This document shows, in pieces, positions 4,216 to 11,000 of a stretch of 64,000 nucleotides of DNA (positions are counted from its first letter, which is position 1; every line of letters begins with the position of its first letter). The notes under the pieces were generated by a model, which was given only the letters and a program-made list of their open reading frames with translations, was not told the origin of the DNA and did no database searches. The translations under genes and the position numbers were made by a program. Source of the stretch: Caldicellulosiruptor hydrothermalis 108 (GTDB taxonomy: Bacteria; Bacillota; Thermoanaerobacteria; Caldicellulosiruptorales; Caldicellulosiruptoraceae). The stretch spans positions 1 to 64,000 of the forward strand of contig NC_014652.1 in the NCBI RefSeq assembly GCF_000166355.1, given 5' to 3'.

Positions 4216-6147
<1,932 letters not shown>

Positions 6148-6164
6148 AAAAGAGGTGTTTCAAA

Positions 6165-6341
6165 GTGGAAGTTGCGAAAAAAATTTATGAAGAAGTTATA
6201 AAACTGCCTGAAGAGACTCAGAGAGAAGTTTTGGATTTTATTGAATTTAAAAAAATGAAATGGAAAAAAAATATAGAAGAAATAATTGATAAAGTTATTG
6301 AAGAAAATTACGAGATATTAAAGGAGTTAGCTGATAAATGA
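6165..6341 (+). CDS. Small DUF2281-like antitoxin candidate
   Basis: A 58-aa reading frame from a GTG start at 6165, preceded by AGAGGTG. The N-terminal half (VAKKIYEEVIKLPEETQREV then LDFIEFKK) resembles DUF2281-type small proteins, which often partner toxins. It is acidic/lysine-rich and mostly helical. Its stop codon overlaps the ATG of the following Doc-like gene (ATGA), the usual translational coupling of an antitoxin-toxin pair. Because the partner is broken by frameshifts, this gene may be a surviving orphan antitoxin. The DUF assignment is by eye. Confidence 0.6.
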   Translation: MEVAKKIYEEVIKLPEETQREVLDFIEFKKMKWKKNIEEIIDKVIEENYEILKELADK

Positions 6342-6720
6342 TAATGTTGAGTATTGAGGATGTATTGTTGATTGCTAAAAAATTAATAGAAAGATTTGGA
6401 GGTACGTTTGGGATAAGAGACAAAGGTTTGCTTGAAAGCTCATTGAACAATGCATTTCAAACATTTAATGGAGAGGAGCTATATAAAACTGATGTAGAAA
6501 AAATTGCAGTTATATCTTACTCAATAATAAGGAATCACCCTCTAAATAGATGGTAATAAAAGATTAGGTATAAGTGTTTTACTAATATTTATGTAAACTC
6601 AACAATATTATCTTAGAATATACAAGAGAAGAGGCAGTAGATTTAGCTATAAGAATTGCAGAAGGCAGTATTGATATTGAAGATGTTGTTGAATGGATAA
6701 AAAAGCATGAGAAAAAGTGA
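6338..6720 (+). pseudogene. Fic/Doc-family toxin gene broken by two frameshifts
   Basis: The first 72 codons give a Doc-like N-terminus (IEDVLLIAKKLIERFGG ... FGIRDKGLLESSLNNAFQ). The expected catalytic loop HPFIDGNKRLG is split: the first frame ends NHPLNRW-stop, while a one-base shift at about 6542-6546 reads IDGNKRLGISVLLIFM. A second one-base shift near 6594-6596 restores a Doc-like C-terminus (EEAVDLAIRIAEGSIDIEDV, then VEWIKKHEK) ending at 6720. So the gene was a full death-on-curing-type Fic toxin and is now inactive unless both shifts are bypassed or are sequencing errors. It overlaps the upstream antitoxin candidate by four bases. Confidence 0.8.
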
Positions 6721-6789
6721 ACACTATAAAGGGAGGTCACAACAGTTGAAAACAACAATGCAAGAAGGTATAATTTTGACCAAGTAATA

Positions 6790-6981
6790 TTGAATGTTGC
6801 TAACTGTGCAAAGGTTAAAGAGATATATGCTATCTGTCAAAGAACACTAATAAACTGGGAAAAAGAAGGGTTTATAACACTCTCTCAGGACACCTCTACT
6901 ATGCATCTTTTTAAAGCAAGGATTTATGGGCAAAGAGGTGCCAAAAAGCATGGTAACAGTTCAAGCCAAGCTAACTTTTGA
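6790..6981 (+). pseudogene. HTH fragment, possible IS607-type recombinase remnant
   Basis: A 63-codon frame contains VKEIYAICQRTLINWEKEGF, which looks like the MerR-type helix-turn-helix at the N-terminus of IS607 serine recombinases (TnpA). No recombinase catalytic domain follows, and the frame runs into the start of the TnpB-related gene. IS607 elements carry tnpA directly upstream of tnpB, so position supports a decayed tnpA. The short length and lack of other motifs keep this tentative. Confidence 0.35.
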
Positions 6982-8413
6982 TAGCAGCGAAGATAAGCAA
7001 AAGGTATTAGACCTAATGAGAAGATGGTCGTCTTGTATGAGGTATGCATACAACAGACTTTTAGAAGGCTGGGATAGAAATACCCTCAAAAGAGAACTGC
7101 AAGGAATTTTTAATCTGAATTCCCGATACGTCGATGATGCATTAATTAAAGCAAAAAGCATTTTAAACTCATGCAAAGAAAAAGGAGAAAATCCTGAAAA
7201 GGTCATTTTTGGTGGCAGACAGCTTTTTAAAAAACTCCAAAAGAGGCACATAAATGGAGAAGCGTACAAGGAACTTCAACGAAAGTGGCGGGAGAAGAGG
7301 AAAGGTAATCTTTATTCAAGAGGAGACAGGAGCAAGAAGGGGAATCTTAACACAAGGATTGAGACAGATGGGGTTTTTACCATGATCAGAATTAACGTGG
7401 GAGAAAGGAAGTACGTATATGCGACGATACAATCTGGATGGAAGACAAAAGGTAAAACGTACACAGACAGGAATCAACTTCTGCAGGCAATAAGCAGCTC
7501 AGGAGAGCCTTATTCTGTAGAGTTGAAACTAAAAAATGGTGTAGTATATGCCTATTTTACTGTTGAAGAGGTTTTTCCAAAGCCCGGGATAACGAGAGCA
7601 AATGGAGTTATAGGTATAGACACTAACGCATATCCAAGACACATAGCATGGGTAGAAACGGATGAGAGGGGACAGTTTTTAAGTTACGGTAGGATACCGA
7701 TGCCAAAGCTTGAGAGCGGAAGCTTAAGCAAAAAAGAGTATTACAGGTGGCAGTATGCTCACATGATAGTACAGATGGCAAAAGGAAAGCAAAAAGCCAT
7801 AGTGATAGAGAACCTTAGCATACAGGACAGGGGCAGAAGAGGAGATTTTTCAGGGAGAAAATCGAGGCGGATAAGGCACTATTTTGGATACAGGTTGCTT
7901 TTGGAGAAGGTAAAACTTCTGGCAAAGCGTGAAGGAATAGAGGTTATAGAAGTGGACCCTGCATACACTTCAGTGATAGGGATGTTGAAGTATGCCCCGC
8001 AGTATATGGTGAGCAAAGACGTTGGGGCAGCGTATGTGATAGCGAGAAGAGGGCTTGGGTTGAGAGAAAGGATACCGCACAATTATATGCAACTTCTTGG
8101 CAGGCTTGATGAAAATGAACTGGATAAGCTGAAGGAATACGTACAGAAGGTAGTTAAGAACACATGCTTAAGGAAAAAGCAACTCAAAGAGATAGAAAGA
8201 GTAAAAAAGTTTTTACAAAGCCCTGAGAGTGAACCAGAGAGGGCATCAGAACCTCTGGACGGAACAAGTTCTGATGTCTGCGGTAAAGTCTGCAATCTCT
8301 GGCGAGTTCTCAGGGTAGCGGTGGTAACACCACTCTCCCCTGGCAGAGTCCTGAGGGACATGTCTGTCCTGAAGTCATTTTTGGTTTCAGGGCAAGTGGG
8401 GAGACCCGGCTAA
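6950..8413 (+). CDS. TnpB-related protein without zinc finger (IS200/IS605/IS607 group)
   Basis: A 487-aa RuvC-fold protein of the transposon-encoded TnpB/OrfB type, whose better-known members are RNA-guided nucleases. RuvC motifs are intact: Asp224 in GVIGIDTNAYP, Glu287 in KAIVIENLSI and Asp357 in VSKDVGAAYVIARR. The CxxC...CxxC zinc-finger module usually found before the last Asp is absent; that stretch reads VDPAYTSVIGMLKYAPQYMV. The start at ATG 6950 is preceded by AGAGGTG; an upstream ATG at 6926 lacks this. The last ~65 codons overlap strongly folded sequence and are probably constrained as RNA. The gene lies between gyrB and gyrA. No active transposase is visible with it. Confidence 0.85.
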   Translation: MVTVQAKLTFDSSEDKQKVLDLMRRWSSCMRYAYNRLLEGWDRNTLKRELQGIFNLNSRYVDDALIKAKSILNSCKEKGENPEKVIFGGRQLFKKLQKRHINGEAYKELQRKWREKRKGNLYSRGDRSKKGNLNTRIETDGVFTMIRINVGERKYVYATIQSGWKTKGKTYTDRNQLLQAISSSGEPYSVELKLKNGVVYAYFTVEEVFPKPGITRANGVIGIDTNAYPRHIAWVETDERGQFLSYGRIPMPKLESGSLSKKEYYRWQYAHMIVQMAKGKQKAIVIENLSIQDRGRRGDFSGRKSRRIRHYFGYRLLLEKVKLLAKREGIEVIEVDPAYTSVIGMLKYAPQYMVSKDVGAAYVIARRGLGLRERIPHNYMQLLGRLDENELDKLKEYVQKVVKNTCLRKKQLKEIERVKKFLQSPESEPERASEPLDGTSSDVCGKVCNLWRVLRVAVVTPLSPGRVLRDMSVLKSFLVSGQVGRPG

Positions 8414-8550
8414 AAAGGGCGCAAGTTCCTGCTTCTTGGGGCAGGGGCTATGGCTTTCCCAAATACCGCCTGCTGGGGATGGGGAAGCCTTGATTTGGCG
8501 GACTACAAATACCCCAGCCGTCAAACTTGTGCTAATGTGCACAGTTTGAT
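8240..8550 (+). ncRNA. Candidate omega-RNA / right-end structure of the TnpB-related element
   Basis: The 3' end of the TnpB-related gene and the following 140 bases hold dense inverted repeats: CATCAGAAC/GTTCTGATG (8244-8252, 8268-8276), CTCAGG/CCTGAG (8309-8314, 8350-8355) enclosing GTGGT/ACCAC (8321-8325, 8329-8333), GGACA/TGTCC (8356-8360, 8365-8369), CCTGC/GCAGG (8428-8432, 8441-8445), and a final hairpin at 8521-8549 (TCAAACTTGTGC against GCACAGTTTGA). GC content is far above the surroundings. In TnpB systems the guide RNA overlaps the tnpB 3' end and stops at the element's right end, so the geometry fits. Transcription is not demonstrated. Confidence 0.55.
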
Positions 8551-8570
8551 TGACCAGGAAAAATTAAAGC

Positions 8571-11000
8571 ATGGAGGAGCTCGATTTTAGGATAATTCCT
8601 GTTGAGATACAGGAAGAGATGAAACGAAGCTATATAGACTATGCAATGAGCGTCATTGTATCTCGTGCACTCCCAGATGTGAGAGATGGCTTAAAGCCTG
8701 TTCACAGAAGAATACTTTATGCAATGAACGAGATAGGTCTTACACCTGACAAGCCTTACAGAAAATCTGCAACAGTTGTAGGGCATGTTCTTGCCAAATA
8801 CCATCCGCACGGCGATGCTGCTGTGTACGAAAGCCTTGTTCGAATGGCACAGGACTTTTCCATGCGCCATCCTCTTGTTGATGGGCATGGAAACTTTGGG
8901 TCGGTTGATGGTGACCCGCCTGCTGCTATGCGTTACACTGAAGCGCGTATGAGCAAAATTGCTATCGAGATGCTTCGCGACATTGAAAAAGAGACAGTTG
9001 ATTTCATGCCGAACTTTGACGAATCGGCAAAAGAACCAAAGGTTTTGCCATCAAGGTTTCCTAATCTTTTGGTAAATGGCAGCCAGGGAATTGCGGTTGG
9101 TATGGCAACAAACATACCGCCTCACAACCTTGCAGAAGTGATAGACGCAATTGTGTACCTACTTGACAATGAGAATGCAGGCTTAGATGACATAATGAAA
9201 ATAATCAAAGGTCCTGATTTTCCAACAGGCGGGTATATCATAGGCAAAAAGGGTATAAGGGATGCTTATGCAACCGGAAAAGGAAAGATAATCGTCAGGG
9301 CAAAAGCAACAATTGAGCAGACCTCCAAGGGAAGACAGAGAATAGTTGTTACAGAACTTCCTTACATGGTCAATAAGGCAAGGCTTATTGAAAAGATTGC
9401 CGAGCTTGTTCACGAGAAAAGGATAGATGGAATTTCTGATATAAGAGATGAGTCTGACAAAGAAGGTCTTAGGATTGTAATTGAAATAAAAAAAGATGCA
9501 GATGCAAATGTAGTTTTAAAACAGCTATACAAAAACACTCAGCTTCAGGACAGCTTTGGAATAATCATGCTTGCGCTTGTTGACAACCAGCCAAAGGTTT
9601 TGACGCTTATGGATATGCTAAATCTTTACATTGAACATCAAAAAGAGGTAATTGTTAGAAGAACAAAGTATGACCTCAAGAAAGCAGAAGAAAGAGCTCA
9701 CATTTTAGAAGGGCTTAAAAAAGCTCTTGACCACATAGATGAGATAATCTCAATCATTAGGTCATCAAAGACGGTAAATGAGGCAAAAGAGAGGCTCATT
9801 AGCAAATTTCAGTTTACAGAGGTCCAAGCTCAAGCAATTCTTGACATGAGACTTCAGCGCTTAACTGGCCTTGAGCGGCAAAAGATTGAAGAAGAGCTTG
9901 CAGAGCTTATCAAGATGATAGAATATTACAAAAACGTGCTTGCAAGTGATGCGATGGTAAAGGAAATTATAAAAAAAGAGATTTTGGAGATAAAAGAAAA
10001 GTACAAGGATGAAAGAAGGACAAAAATAGTTCAGGACGAACATGAAGACTTTGAGGAAGAAGAGCTGATTCAAGAGCAGGAAACTGTAATCACACTTACC
10101 CATTTTGGGTATATAAAACGGCTTCCTCTTGACACGTACAAGAGCCAGAAACGAGGTGGCAGAGGCATCACAGGAATATCAACAAGAGAAGAGGATTTTG
10201 TAGAAGATGTCTTTGTCACAACAACACACCACTACATTCTCTTTTTCACAGACAAAGGAAGGGTATTTCGCTTGAGAGCATATGAAGTGCCAGAAGGTTC
10301 GCGCCAGGCAAAAGGCACTGCAATTGTCAACCTCATTCAGATTGGTAAGGACGAAAAGATTACAGCAACCATGGCTGTAAAGGACTTTAAAGAAGGTTAT
10401 CTTATGATGTGTACTAAAAACGGCACGATAAAGAAGGTGCTTTTGAGCGAGTTTGAAAACACAACAAAAGCAGGTAAAAAAGCAATAACCCTTGCAGATG
10501 ATGATAGCCTTGTTGATGTAAAACTCACATCTGGAAACGATGAGATTGTGCTTGTATCGAGCAATGGATACTGTGTTGTGTTCAATGAAAACGATGTAAG
10601 AAGTATGGGAAGGACTGCACAGGGTGTAAAAGGTATGACGCTGGAAGATGGCGATTTTATTGTTGGAATGGAAAAGGCAAGCGATGGAAAGTATCTTCTT
10701 TGCGTCACAGAAAACGGGTTTGGCAAAAGAAGCGAGATTGAAGAGTATAGAAAAACAAAGCGCGGCGCAAAAGGTGTTTTGACATATAAAGTTACAGATA
10801 AGACAGGCAGTATTGTTGATATAAAGATGGTAAACGATGATGATGAGATAATGATATGTTCTACGGAAGGGATATTTATAAGGCTTGAGGTCTCTCAAGT
10901 TCCAGTTCAGGGAAGAAATACACAGGGTGTGAAACTTATGCGAATTGATAGCGATAATATAAAAGTTTCGTCAATTGCAAGGATAAAGGTAGATGAATAG
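8571..11000 (+). CDS. gyrA: DNA gyrase subunit A
   Basis: DNA cleavage/rejoining subunit of gyrase, 809 aa, normal size. The catalytic-tyrosine region reads [14 protein letters not shown], the quinolone-resistance region is [19 protein letters not shown], and the C-terminal beta-pinwheel carries the GyrA-box-like [11 protein letters not shown]. The N-terminus ([20 protein letters not shown]) is typical. The start ATG is only about 20 bases after the folded right end of the TnpB-related element, so the element may have replaced the native leader. A rho-independent terminator follows. Confidence 0.97.

What the first reader, a model, noticed from the sequence alone, without database searches (positions are those of the whole stretch)
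6950..8550. Zinc-finger-less TnpB relative with an intact RuvC triad and a folded 3' RNA, sitting between gyrB and gyrA
The protein keeps Asp224, Glu287 and Asp357 of RuvC but has no CxxC zinc-finger pair, and its 3' end plus 140 following bases are packed with inverted repeats up to a terminal hairpin about 20 bases before gyrA. Canonical TnpB uses such an RNA as guide scaffold; domesticated TnpB relatives have lost transposase partners and become regulators. Here no working transposase is present. If a guide is taken from sequence right of about 8550, it would come from the gyrA start region. A role at gyrA, or a repurposed RNA-guided function, is inference.
Basis: partly seen in the sequence, partly recalled or inferred. 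Interest (0 to 1): 0.75.

Follow-up and report, generated by a model that had tools for sequence, protein, structure and literature searches.

The report
Jumping gene parked in gyrA's ribosome-binding site
A transposon encoding a Cas12-like RNA-guided cutter has lost most of its own transposase and sits exactly in the ribosome-binding site of the essential gene gyrA; its relatives land in such sites in front of many genes, and the end of its guide RNA also occurs alone, as a conserved folded leader in front of unrelated genes.

Summary
Window 6737-8558 is a tnpA-deleted IS607-family element. It encodes a TnpB-related protein (TIGR01765/TIGR01766) with RuvC D224/E287/D357 and a Cas12f/TnpB-like predicted fold, followed by a structured RNA (105 pairs counted, 32 with compensatory changes). 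Lack of a zinc finger is a family trait, not decay.

New here: natural empty sites at gyrA and 13 other loci show insertion directly after GGAGG, the Shine-Dalgarno sequence. In 38 of 44 copies a start codon follows within 3-14 nt, against 26% of GGAGG sites generally. GGAGG is therefore the probable TAM (compare ISFba1, AGGAG), and the guide is the host gene's start region. In a sister genome the gyrA insertion is reduced to its last ~118 nt.

By-catch: that same 3' hairpin-pseudoknot occurs without any adjacent tnpB as a leader before diverse genes. It is conserved across genera before an AMMECR1/Memo gene, including two genomes with no detectable TnpB, covaries, and is absent from Rfam 15. 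This looks like an unrecognised leader-RNA class related to a transposon guide RNA.

The parts
6732..6736 (+). GGAGG: the original gyrA Shine-Dalgarno sequence, now the left flank of the element (probable TAM)
   Evidence: Empty gyrA sites in G004, G005, G006, G008 and G009 read ATAAAGGGAGG|AAAAATTAAAGCATG; 13 other loci show the same
6737..8558 (+). Inserted element (net 1822 bp; the exact ends are ambiguous by the shared AGG): left end TCACAACAGTTG..., right end ...GACCAGG
   Evidence: Comparison with the empty site; end alignments of 44 copies
6790..6931 (+). tnpA remnant: MerR-like N-terminus (QRTLINWEKEG) joined to the C-terminal end (ARIYGQRGAKKHGN); about 395 bp missing at 6895/6904
   Evidence: NF033518 weak hit 0.0017; gap against complete copies; full-length tnpA frames of relatives
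6950..8413 (+). TnpB-related protein without zinc finger; RuvC codons D224 (7619-7621), E287 (7808-7810), D357 (8018-8020); the frame runs into the RNA
   Evidence: TIGR01765 1.8e-22 and TIGR01766 1.2e-15; Cas12f Z 16.8 and ISDra2 TnpB Z 13.4; dN/dS 0.14-0.22 against relatives
8220..8558 (+). Structured RNA (candidate omega/re-RNA scaffold) overlapping the 3' end of tnpB
   Evidence: 34-sequence alignment A1
8450..8518 (+). P1 stem and double pseudoknot core (CCGCC 8466-8470 with GGCGG 8497-8501; GCTGGG 8472-8477 with CCCAGC 8513-8518); also occurs alone elsewhere as a leader RNA
8520..8549 (+). Terminal hairpin of the RNA
   Evidence: Helices 14-15
8554..8558 (+). CCAGG right end: keeps AGG as a partial Shine-Dalgarno for gyrA but is no longer GGAGG
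   Evidence: the protective role is inference
8559..8578 (+). Predicted guide segment AAAAATTAAAGCATGGAGGA (gyrA leader and start codon)
   Evidence: Position by analogy with IS607 TnpBs (PMC10711439, PMC11061315); not measured

Best explanation
This is a non-autonomous, tnpA-deleted copy of an IS607-family insertion sequence. A serine transposase, supplied in trans by a full-length relative, inserted it by recombination at the GG that ends the gyrA Shine-Dalgarno GGAGG, without target duplication. Shown: the insertion point, the empty site, the lost tnpA, the conserved RuvC triad, the Cas12f/TnpB-like predicted fold, the covarying RNA and the family-wide preference for Shine-Dalgarno sites. 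Inferred: the transcript through tnpB is processed into a scaffold of up to about 340 nt plus a guide of 16-20 nt copied from whatever follows the right end, here the gyrA start region. The nuclease needs GGAGG (TAM) next to the target, so it cuts an empty gyrA allele (GGAGG+guide) and lets the element-bearing copy repair it, which retains the insertion. Its own right junction reads CCAGG, so the donor is spared while AGG remains as a weak ribosome-binding site for gyrA. No regulatory role at gyrA is needed.
For: Family models and fold. Multicopy and scattered in 11 of 13 genomes. Full-length tnpA frames in L006, L015, L026, L046, L058, L060 and others. Empty gyrA sites in five genomes and a deletion derivative in G002. 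Thirteen further natural empty sites, nearly all with GGAGG at the junction. Start codon 3-14 nt after the right end in 38/44 copies against 33/128 for GGAGG sites generally. RNA covariation. Guide plus GGAGG absent from the host genome except at its own CCAGG junction. Experimentally determined AGGAG/GAGGG TAMs for other IS607 TnpBs (PMC11061315). GG crossover and scaffold boundary for IS607 (PMC10711439).
Against: No biochemical proof that a TnpB of this zinc-finger-less type is RNA-guided or cuts DNA. It scores 50.7 bits against the NF040570 guided_TnpB cut-off of 100. The model has modest confidence (pLDDT 68.7, pTM 0.55). No transcript data. The window branch shows 5 synonymous and 14 nonsynonymous changes, so this particular copy may be decaying.
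Confidence: 0.82

Rival explanations
1. Domesticated regulator: the protein and RNA have been kept between gyrB and gyrA to control gyrA, like a TldR or a repurposed RNA-guided factor.
For: The gyrA insertion is shared by G000 and G002; the triad and RNA are intact; the guide would match the gyrA start.
Against: Empty gyrA sites in five congeners and loss of tnpB in G002; intact nuclease triad, unlike RuvC-dead TldRs; no second TAM+guide target in the genome; the same anatomy lies in front of dozens of unrelated genes; no sign of tightened selection on the window copy.
Confidence: 0.06
2. Dead remnant: the copy is a drifting pseudo-element whose protein is no longer made or active; only the RNA/leader portion matters, because gyrA is now translated from it.
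For: tnpA deleted; single copy in its genome; G002 kept only the RNA core before gyrA; 14 nonsynonymous versus 5 synonymous changes on its branch.
Against: The frame is open over 495 codons with a complete triad and complete RNA; dN/dS against relatives is 0.14-0.22; tnpA-less copies have clearly been moved in trans in G007.
Confidence: 0.25
3. Shine-Dalgarno preference is purely survivorship: the transposase inserts at any GG and insertions elsewhere are purged.
For: IS607 transposases are described as having minimal target specificity (PMC4058570 abstract).
Against: The preserved junction is GGAGG or a close variant, not just GG, in nearly all copies and in the empty alleles, which points to a requirement beyond GG, such as a TAM.
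Confidence: 0.3

Closest known systems
ISFba1-type IS607 TnpB with RAGATH-18 reRNA (PMC11061315)
   Same: IS607 element, TnpB with RuvC D-E-D, folded RNA with pseudoknots directly 3' of tnpB, purine TAM AGGAG/GAGGG next to the left end, tnpA often broken
   Different: The window RNA matches no Rfam family, RAGATH-18 presumably included; here the TAM-like motif is shown to coincide with ribosome-binding sites, which that paper does not mention
TIGR01765/TIGR01766 TnpB-related proteins (Thermoanaerobacter-type)
   Same: The window protein is a member over the curated cut-off; zinc finger replaced by a short linker (TS.IG..KYAPQ)
   Different: I know of no described RNA or guide for this group; many deeper relatives have His/Glu where this one has the RuvC-III Asp
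ISDra2 TnpB and Cas12f
   Same: Predicted fold (Z 13.4 and 16.8), RuvC triad
   Different: Zinc finger/TNB region absent; different transposase family (ISDra2 is IS200/IS605); 12-18% identity
TldR (RuvC-dead TnpB-derived RNA-guided repressors)
   Same: TnpB-like protein with adjacent guide RNA
   Different: TldR has lost RuvC catalysis; here the triad is intact and the element is part of a mobile multicopy family

Membership tests
IS607-family insertion sequence | Serine-recombinase TnpA with N-terminal MerR-like domain | tested here: not met
   In this copy tnpA is internally deleted (about 395 bp); nine relatives carry full-length or near-full-length frames of about 184-202 aa, NF033518 up to 236 bits. 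It is a deletion derivative of the family, not an autonomous member.
IS607-family insertion sequence | Insertion at GG without target duplication or terminal inverted repeats | tested here: met
   gyrA empty site compared with the filled site; 13 more loci
TIGR01765/TIGR01766 TnpB-related | Score above curated cut-offs | tested here: met
   79.1 vs 47.25 bits and 57.8 vs 32 bits
Canonical RNA-guided TnpB (NF040570) | Score above the curated cut-off | tested here: not met
   50.7 vs 100 bits
Canonical RNA-guided TnpB | RuvC D-E-D triad | tested here: met
   D224, E287, D357
Canonical RNA-guided TnpB | CxxC...CxxC zinc finger between RuvC-II and RuvC-III | tested here: not met
   Absent here and in the relatives examined
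Canonical RNA-guided TnpB | Structured RNA overlapping the 3' end of tnpB and ending at the right end | tested here: met
Canonical RNA-guided TnpB | RNA binding, guide use, TAM-dependent cleavage | not testable with these tools
   Needs biochemistry; GGAGG as TAM is inferred from the flanks
RAGATH-18 reRNA | Match to the covariance model | tested here: not met
   No Rfam 15 match at E 1 and no RAGATH-18 match at E 10 in L003; that RAGATH-18 is in this Rfam copy is assumed from PMC11061315, not checked
TldR | Catalytically dead RuvC | tested here: not met
   Triad intact
IStron (IS607 + group I intron) | Group I intron | tested here: not met
   No Rfam match in 6000-9000

The most novel reading that the evidence does not exclude
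The 3' hairpin-pseudoknot core of this transposon's guide-RNA scaffold is shared with a stand-alone leader-RNA class. Because these elements insert into Shine-Dalgarno sites, their RNA becomes the 5' leader of host genes, and pared-down copies (as at gyrA in G002) can be kept as cis-acting leaders after tnpB is lost; or, conversely, the element captured an older leader RNA. Orphan copies lie a few tens of nucleotides before diverse genes in several genera, keep their fold by compensatory mutation including one pseudoknot pair, and persist in two genomes with no detectable TnpB.
Probability: 0.5. Interest if true: 0.8.

Novelty: new variant of a known kind. Interest (0 to 1): 0.6.

Why it matters
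TnpB elements are thought to persist by cutting empty donor sites. Here the probable TAM is the ribosome-binding site itself, so each insertion programs the nuclease with the start region of a host gene and spares its own right junction by changing GGAGG to CCAGG while leaving AGG. That explains how such elements can sit in front of essential genes (gyrA, dnaN) and makes a specific TAM prediction for a zinc-finger-less TnpB group that, as far as I know, has not been characterised. The orphan leader RNAs are a possible second case, besides TldR, of host use of TnpB-system parts, but of the RNA alone; their function can be tested directly with reporter fusions.

Tried and rejected
Rfam scans of the window region, of a complete copy, of the orphan RNAs and of their flanks gave no related family (only an unrelated c-di-AMP riboswitch in L170). 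Sequence search of PDB gave one irrelevant hit. Single-protein genome-contig search found only 5 loci; whole-genome search was better. Group I intron / IStron: rejected (no Rfam hit). TldR-like exaptation: rejected (triad intact, scattered copies). A possible extra outer pair 17-372 of the RNAalifold model was dropped as implausible. A 24-sequence alignment (A6) misplaced the P1 3' strand of the AMMECR1-type leaders, so the covariance model was built without them; it then found them at 46-56 bits. Consensus scanning found no sigma-70-type promoter before the L216 leader, so a transcription start there is not claimed. Paper searches for Shine-Dalgarno targeting by IS607/TnpB, for zinc-finger-less TnpB and for leader RNAs before AMMECR1 found nothing in the open library.

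Full report
What is there. The reported protein, RuvC triad, absence of a zinc finger and folded 3' region are all present. The protein exceeds the curated cut-offs of TIGR01765 (79.1 vs 47.25 bits) and TIGR01766 (57.8 vs 32) but not the guided-TnpB model NF040570 (50.7 vs 100). An AlphaFold model from 19 family members (pLDDT 68.7, pTM 0.55) aligns best to Cas12f (Z 16.8, 296 residues, rmsd 5.5), Cas12k and ISDra2 TnpB (Z 13.4). The missing zinc finger is a family trait: all close and nearly all deeper relatives lack CxxC and have a short linker such as TSVIGMLKYAPQYMVSKD between RuvC-II and RuvC-III.

It is a mobile element. The same protein occurs 1-11 times per genome in 11 of 13 genomes of the GTDB family and in Caldanaerobacter, Thermoanaerobacter and Thermovorax. 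Complete copies (about 2.2 kb) carry an IS607 tnpA; nine have full-length or near-full-length frames of about 184-202 aa. The window copy lacks about 395 bp of tnpA between 6895 and 6904 but keeps the tnpA start and end. Several other copies have different tnpA deletions, and in G007 a tnpA-less form is itself multicopy, so such forms move in trans. The host genome has one intact IS607 tnpA elsewhere (C1:310415-310969); whether it acts on this element is untested.

The insertion site. In five relatives the gyrB-gyrA spacer holds the precise empty site ATAAAGGGAGG|AAAAATTAAAGCATG; the window reads ATAAAGGGAGG-TCACAACAG...GACCAGG-AAAAATTAAAGCATG. G002 has the same insertion reduced by deletion to window 8443-8558 (99% identical). 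I joined the flanks of 21 other insertions and searched congeners: 13 natural empty alleles were aligned, with GGAGG at the junction in nearly all (one GGAGGA within GGAGGAAGG, one GG-GGG) and the element inserted without duplication. One is dnaN in G009, whose empty counterpart is in this window (GGAGG at 1681-1685). In 38 of 44 copies an ORF of at least 50 codons starts 3-14 nt after the right end, against 33 of 128 GGAGG sites in held sequence and 11% of arbitrary positions. A few copies share an orthologous site, so the 44 are not fully independent. The target is therefore the Shine-Dalgarno sequence.

The RNA. Thirty-four non-redundant copies aligned over window 8200-8558 give a consensus fold with 102 pairs, 32 with changes on both sides. 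With two pseudoknots written in (105 pairs), 98.6% of cells pair against 39-50% for slid partners, and 158 doubly changed cells against 40.7 in shuffles. The pseudoknot pairs are almost invariant within the elements.

Mechanism. Shown: insertion site, family mobility, intact triad, predicted fold, RNA structure. From other IS607 TnpBs: reRNA processing, a guide taken from beyond the right end, AGGAG/GAGGG TAMs next to the left end, GG crossover (PMC11061315, PMC10711439). Inferred here: GGAGG is the TAM, the guide is AAAAATTAAAGCATGGAGGA, the nuclease attacks empty gyrA alleles, and CCAGG at the right junction prevents self-cutting while leaving AGG for ribosome binding. The host genome has no other site within one mismatch of GGAGG+AAAAATTAAAGC; the two-mismatch matches are the element's own CCAGG junction and three sites elsewhere. 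A regulatory role at gyrA is not needed and is disfavoured by the empty sites, the G002 deletion and the relaxed-looking branch (5 synonymous, 14 nonsynonymous; small numbers, with a bias against counting synonymous changes that applies equally to the comparison branch at 6:6). Over the family, dN/dS is 0.14-0.22.

By-catch: orphan RNA cores. A 65-nt piece of the RNA matched one extra locus in most congeners: a stand-alone copy before a GH2 glycosidase gene next to mannonate dehydratase, later also found in G007. This set plus two further solo copies covaries (8 of 28 pairs changed on both sides; 98.2% paired). A covariance model of the P1-pseudoknot core (R1) hits 24 of 30 genomes with a clear gap between true hits (45 bits and above) and background (under 40). 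Sixteen orphan loci checked have no tnpB upstream. Orphans lie before genes for AMMECR1/Memo, GH2, RadA-like ATPase, SSB, PriA, Fe-ADH, threonine-aldolase-like, amidase, S58 peptidase, AzlC, thioredoxin-like and others, with no metabolic theme. The AMMECR1/Memo leader is conserved in three genera (L164, L165, L167, L168, L211), and two of those genomes (G049, G259) have no TIGR01766 match at all. Across 38 orphans, 95.6% of cells pair, all ten P1 pairs have double changes, and pseudoknot pair U27-A79 becomes C-G in L211 and L212. None of this is in Rfam 15. Simple remnants without function would not be expected to keep a covarying fold across genera. A cis-acting leader is the best reading, and G002 gyrA shows how one could arise from an insertion. 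Whether the leader or the element's RNA is older is open.

Verdict. The element itself is a tnpA-deleted member of a known kind with two unusual features, a ribosome-binding-site target and no zinc finger. The shared leader RNA is the more novel part and is not proved.

Noticed in passing
L164:3141-3203, L036:4500-4567, L211:764-831, L216:1734-1800 and others: Stand-alone hairpin-pseudoknot leader RNAs, homologous to the 3' core of the element's RNA, before diverse genes with no tnpB nearby; not in Rfam 15.
   Followed up: partly
window 6165-6720: DUF2281/Fic(Doc)-like pair between gyrB and the element; the Fic frame is broken near 6545 (reads ...NHPLNRW*), whereas the empty-site relatives read through ...HPMIDGNKR.
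   Followed up: no
L044:4757-4994 (G000:C1:397756-397993) and L061:1585-1819 (G002): A 240-nt 3' fragment of the element (RNA only), cut at the same point in both genomes, upstream of an HU-like gene.
   Followed up: no
L007, L008, L009, L011, L014, L031, L035 and others: Repeated, apparently independent internal deletions of tnpA with tnpB and RNA kept; in G007 a tnpA-less form is multicopy.
   Followed up: partly
L127, L128, L129, L131, L135, L136, L141, L142, L144: Deep relatives of the zinc-finger-less TnpB have His/Glu (HxAAAxxIARR) where the window family has the RuvC-III Asp.
   Followed up: no
L204:1795-1863: An orphan leader RNA directly upstream of a Cas_TM1802-type CRISPR-associated gene.
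   Followed up: no
L029 (G009:C1:2331-3641): Another copy of the element sits in the Shine-Dalgarno of dnaN in G009; the window's own dnaN (GGAGG 1681-1685) is the empty counterpart.
   Followed up: yes
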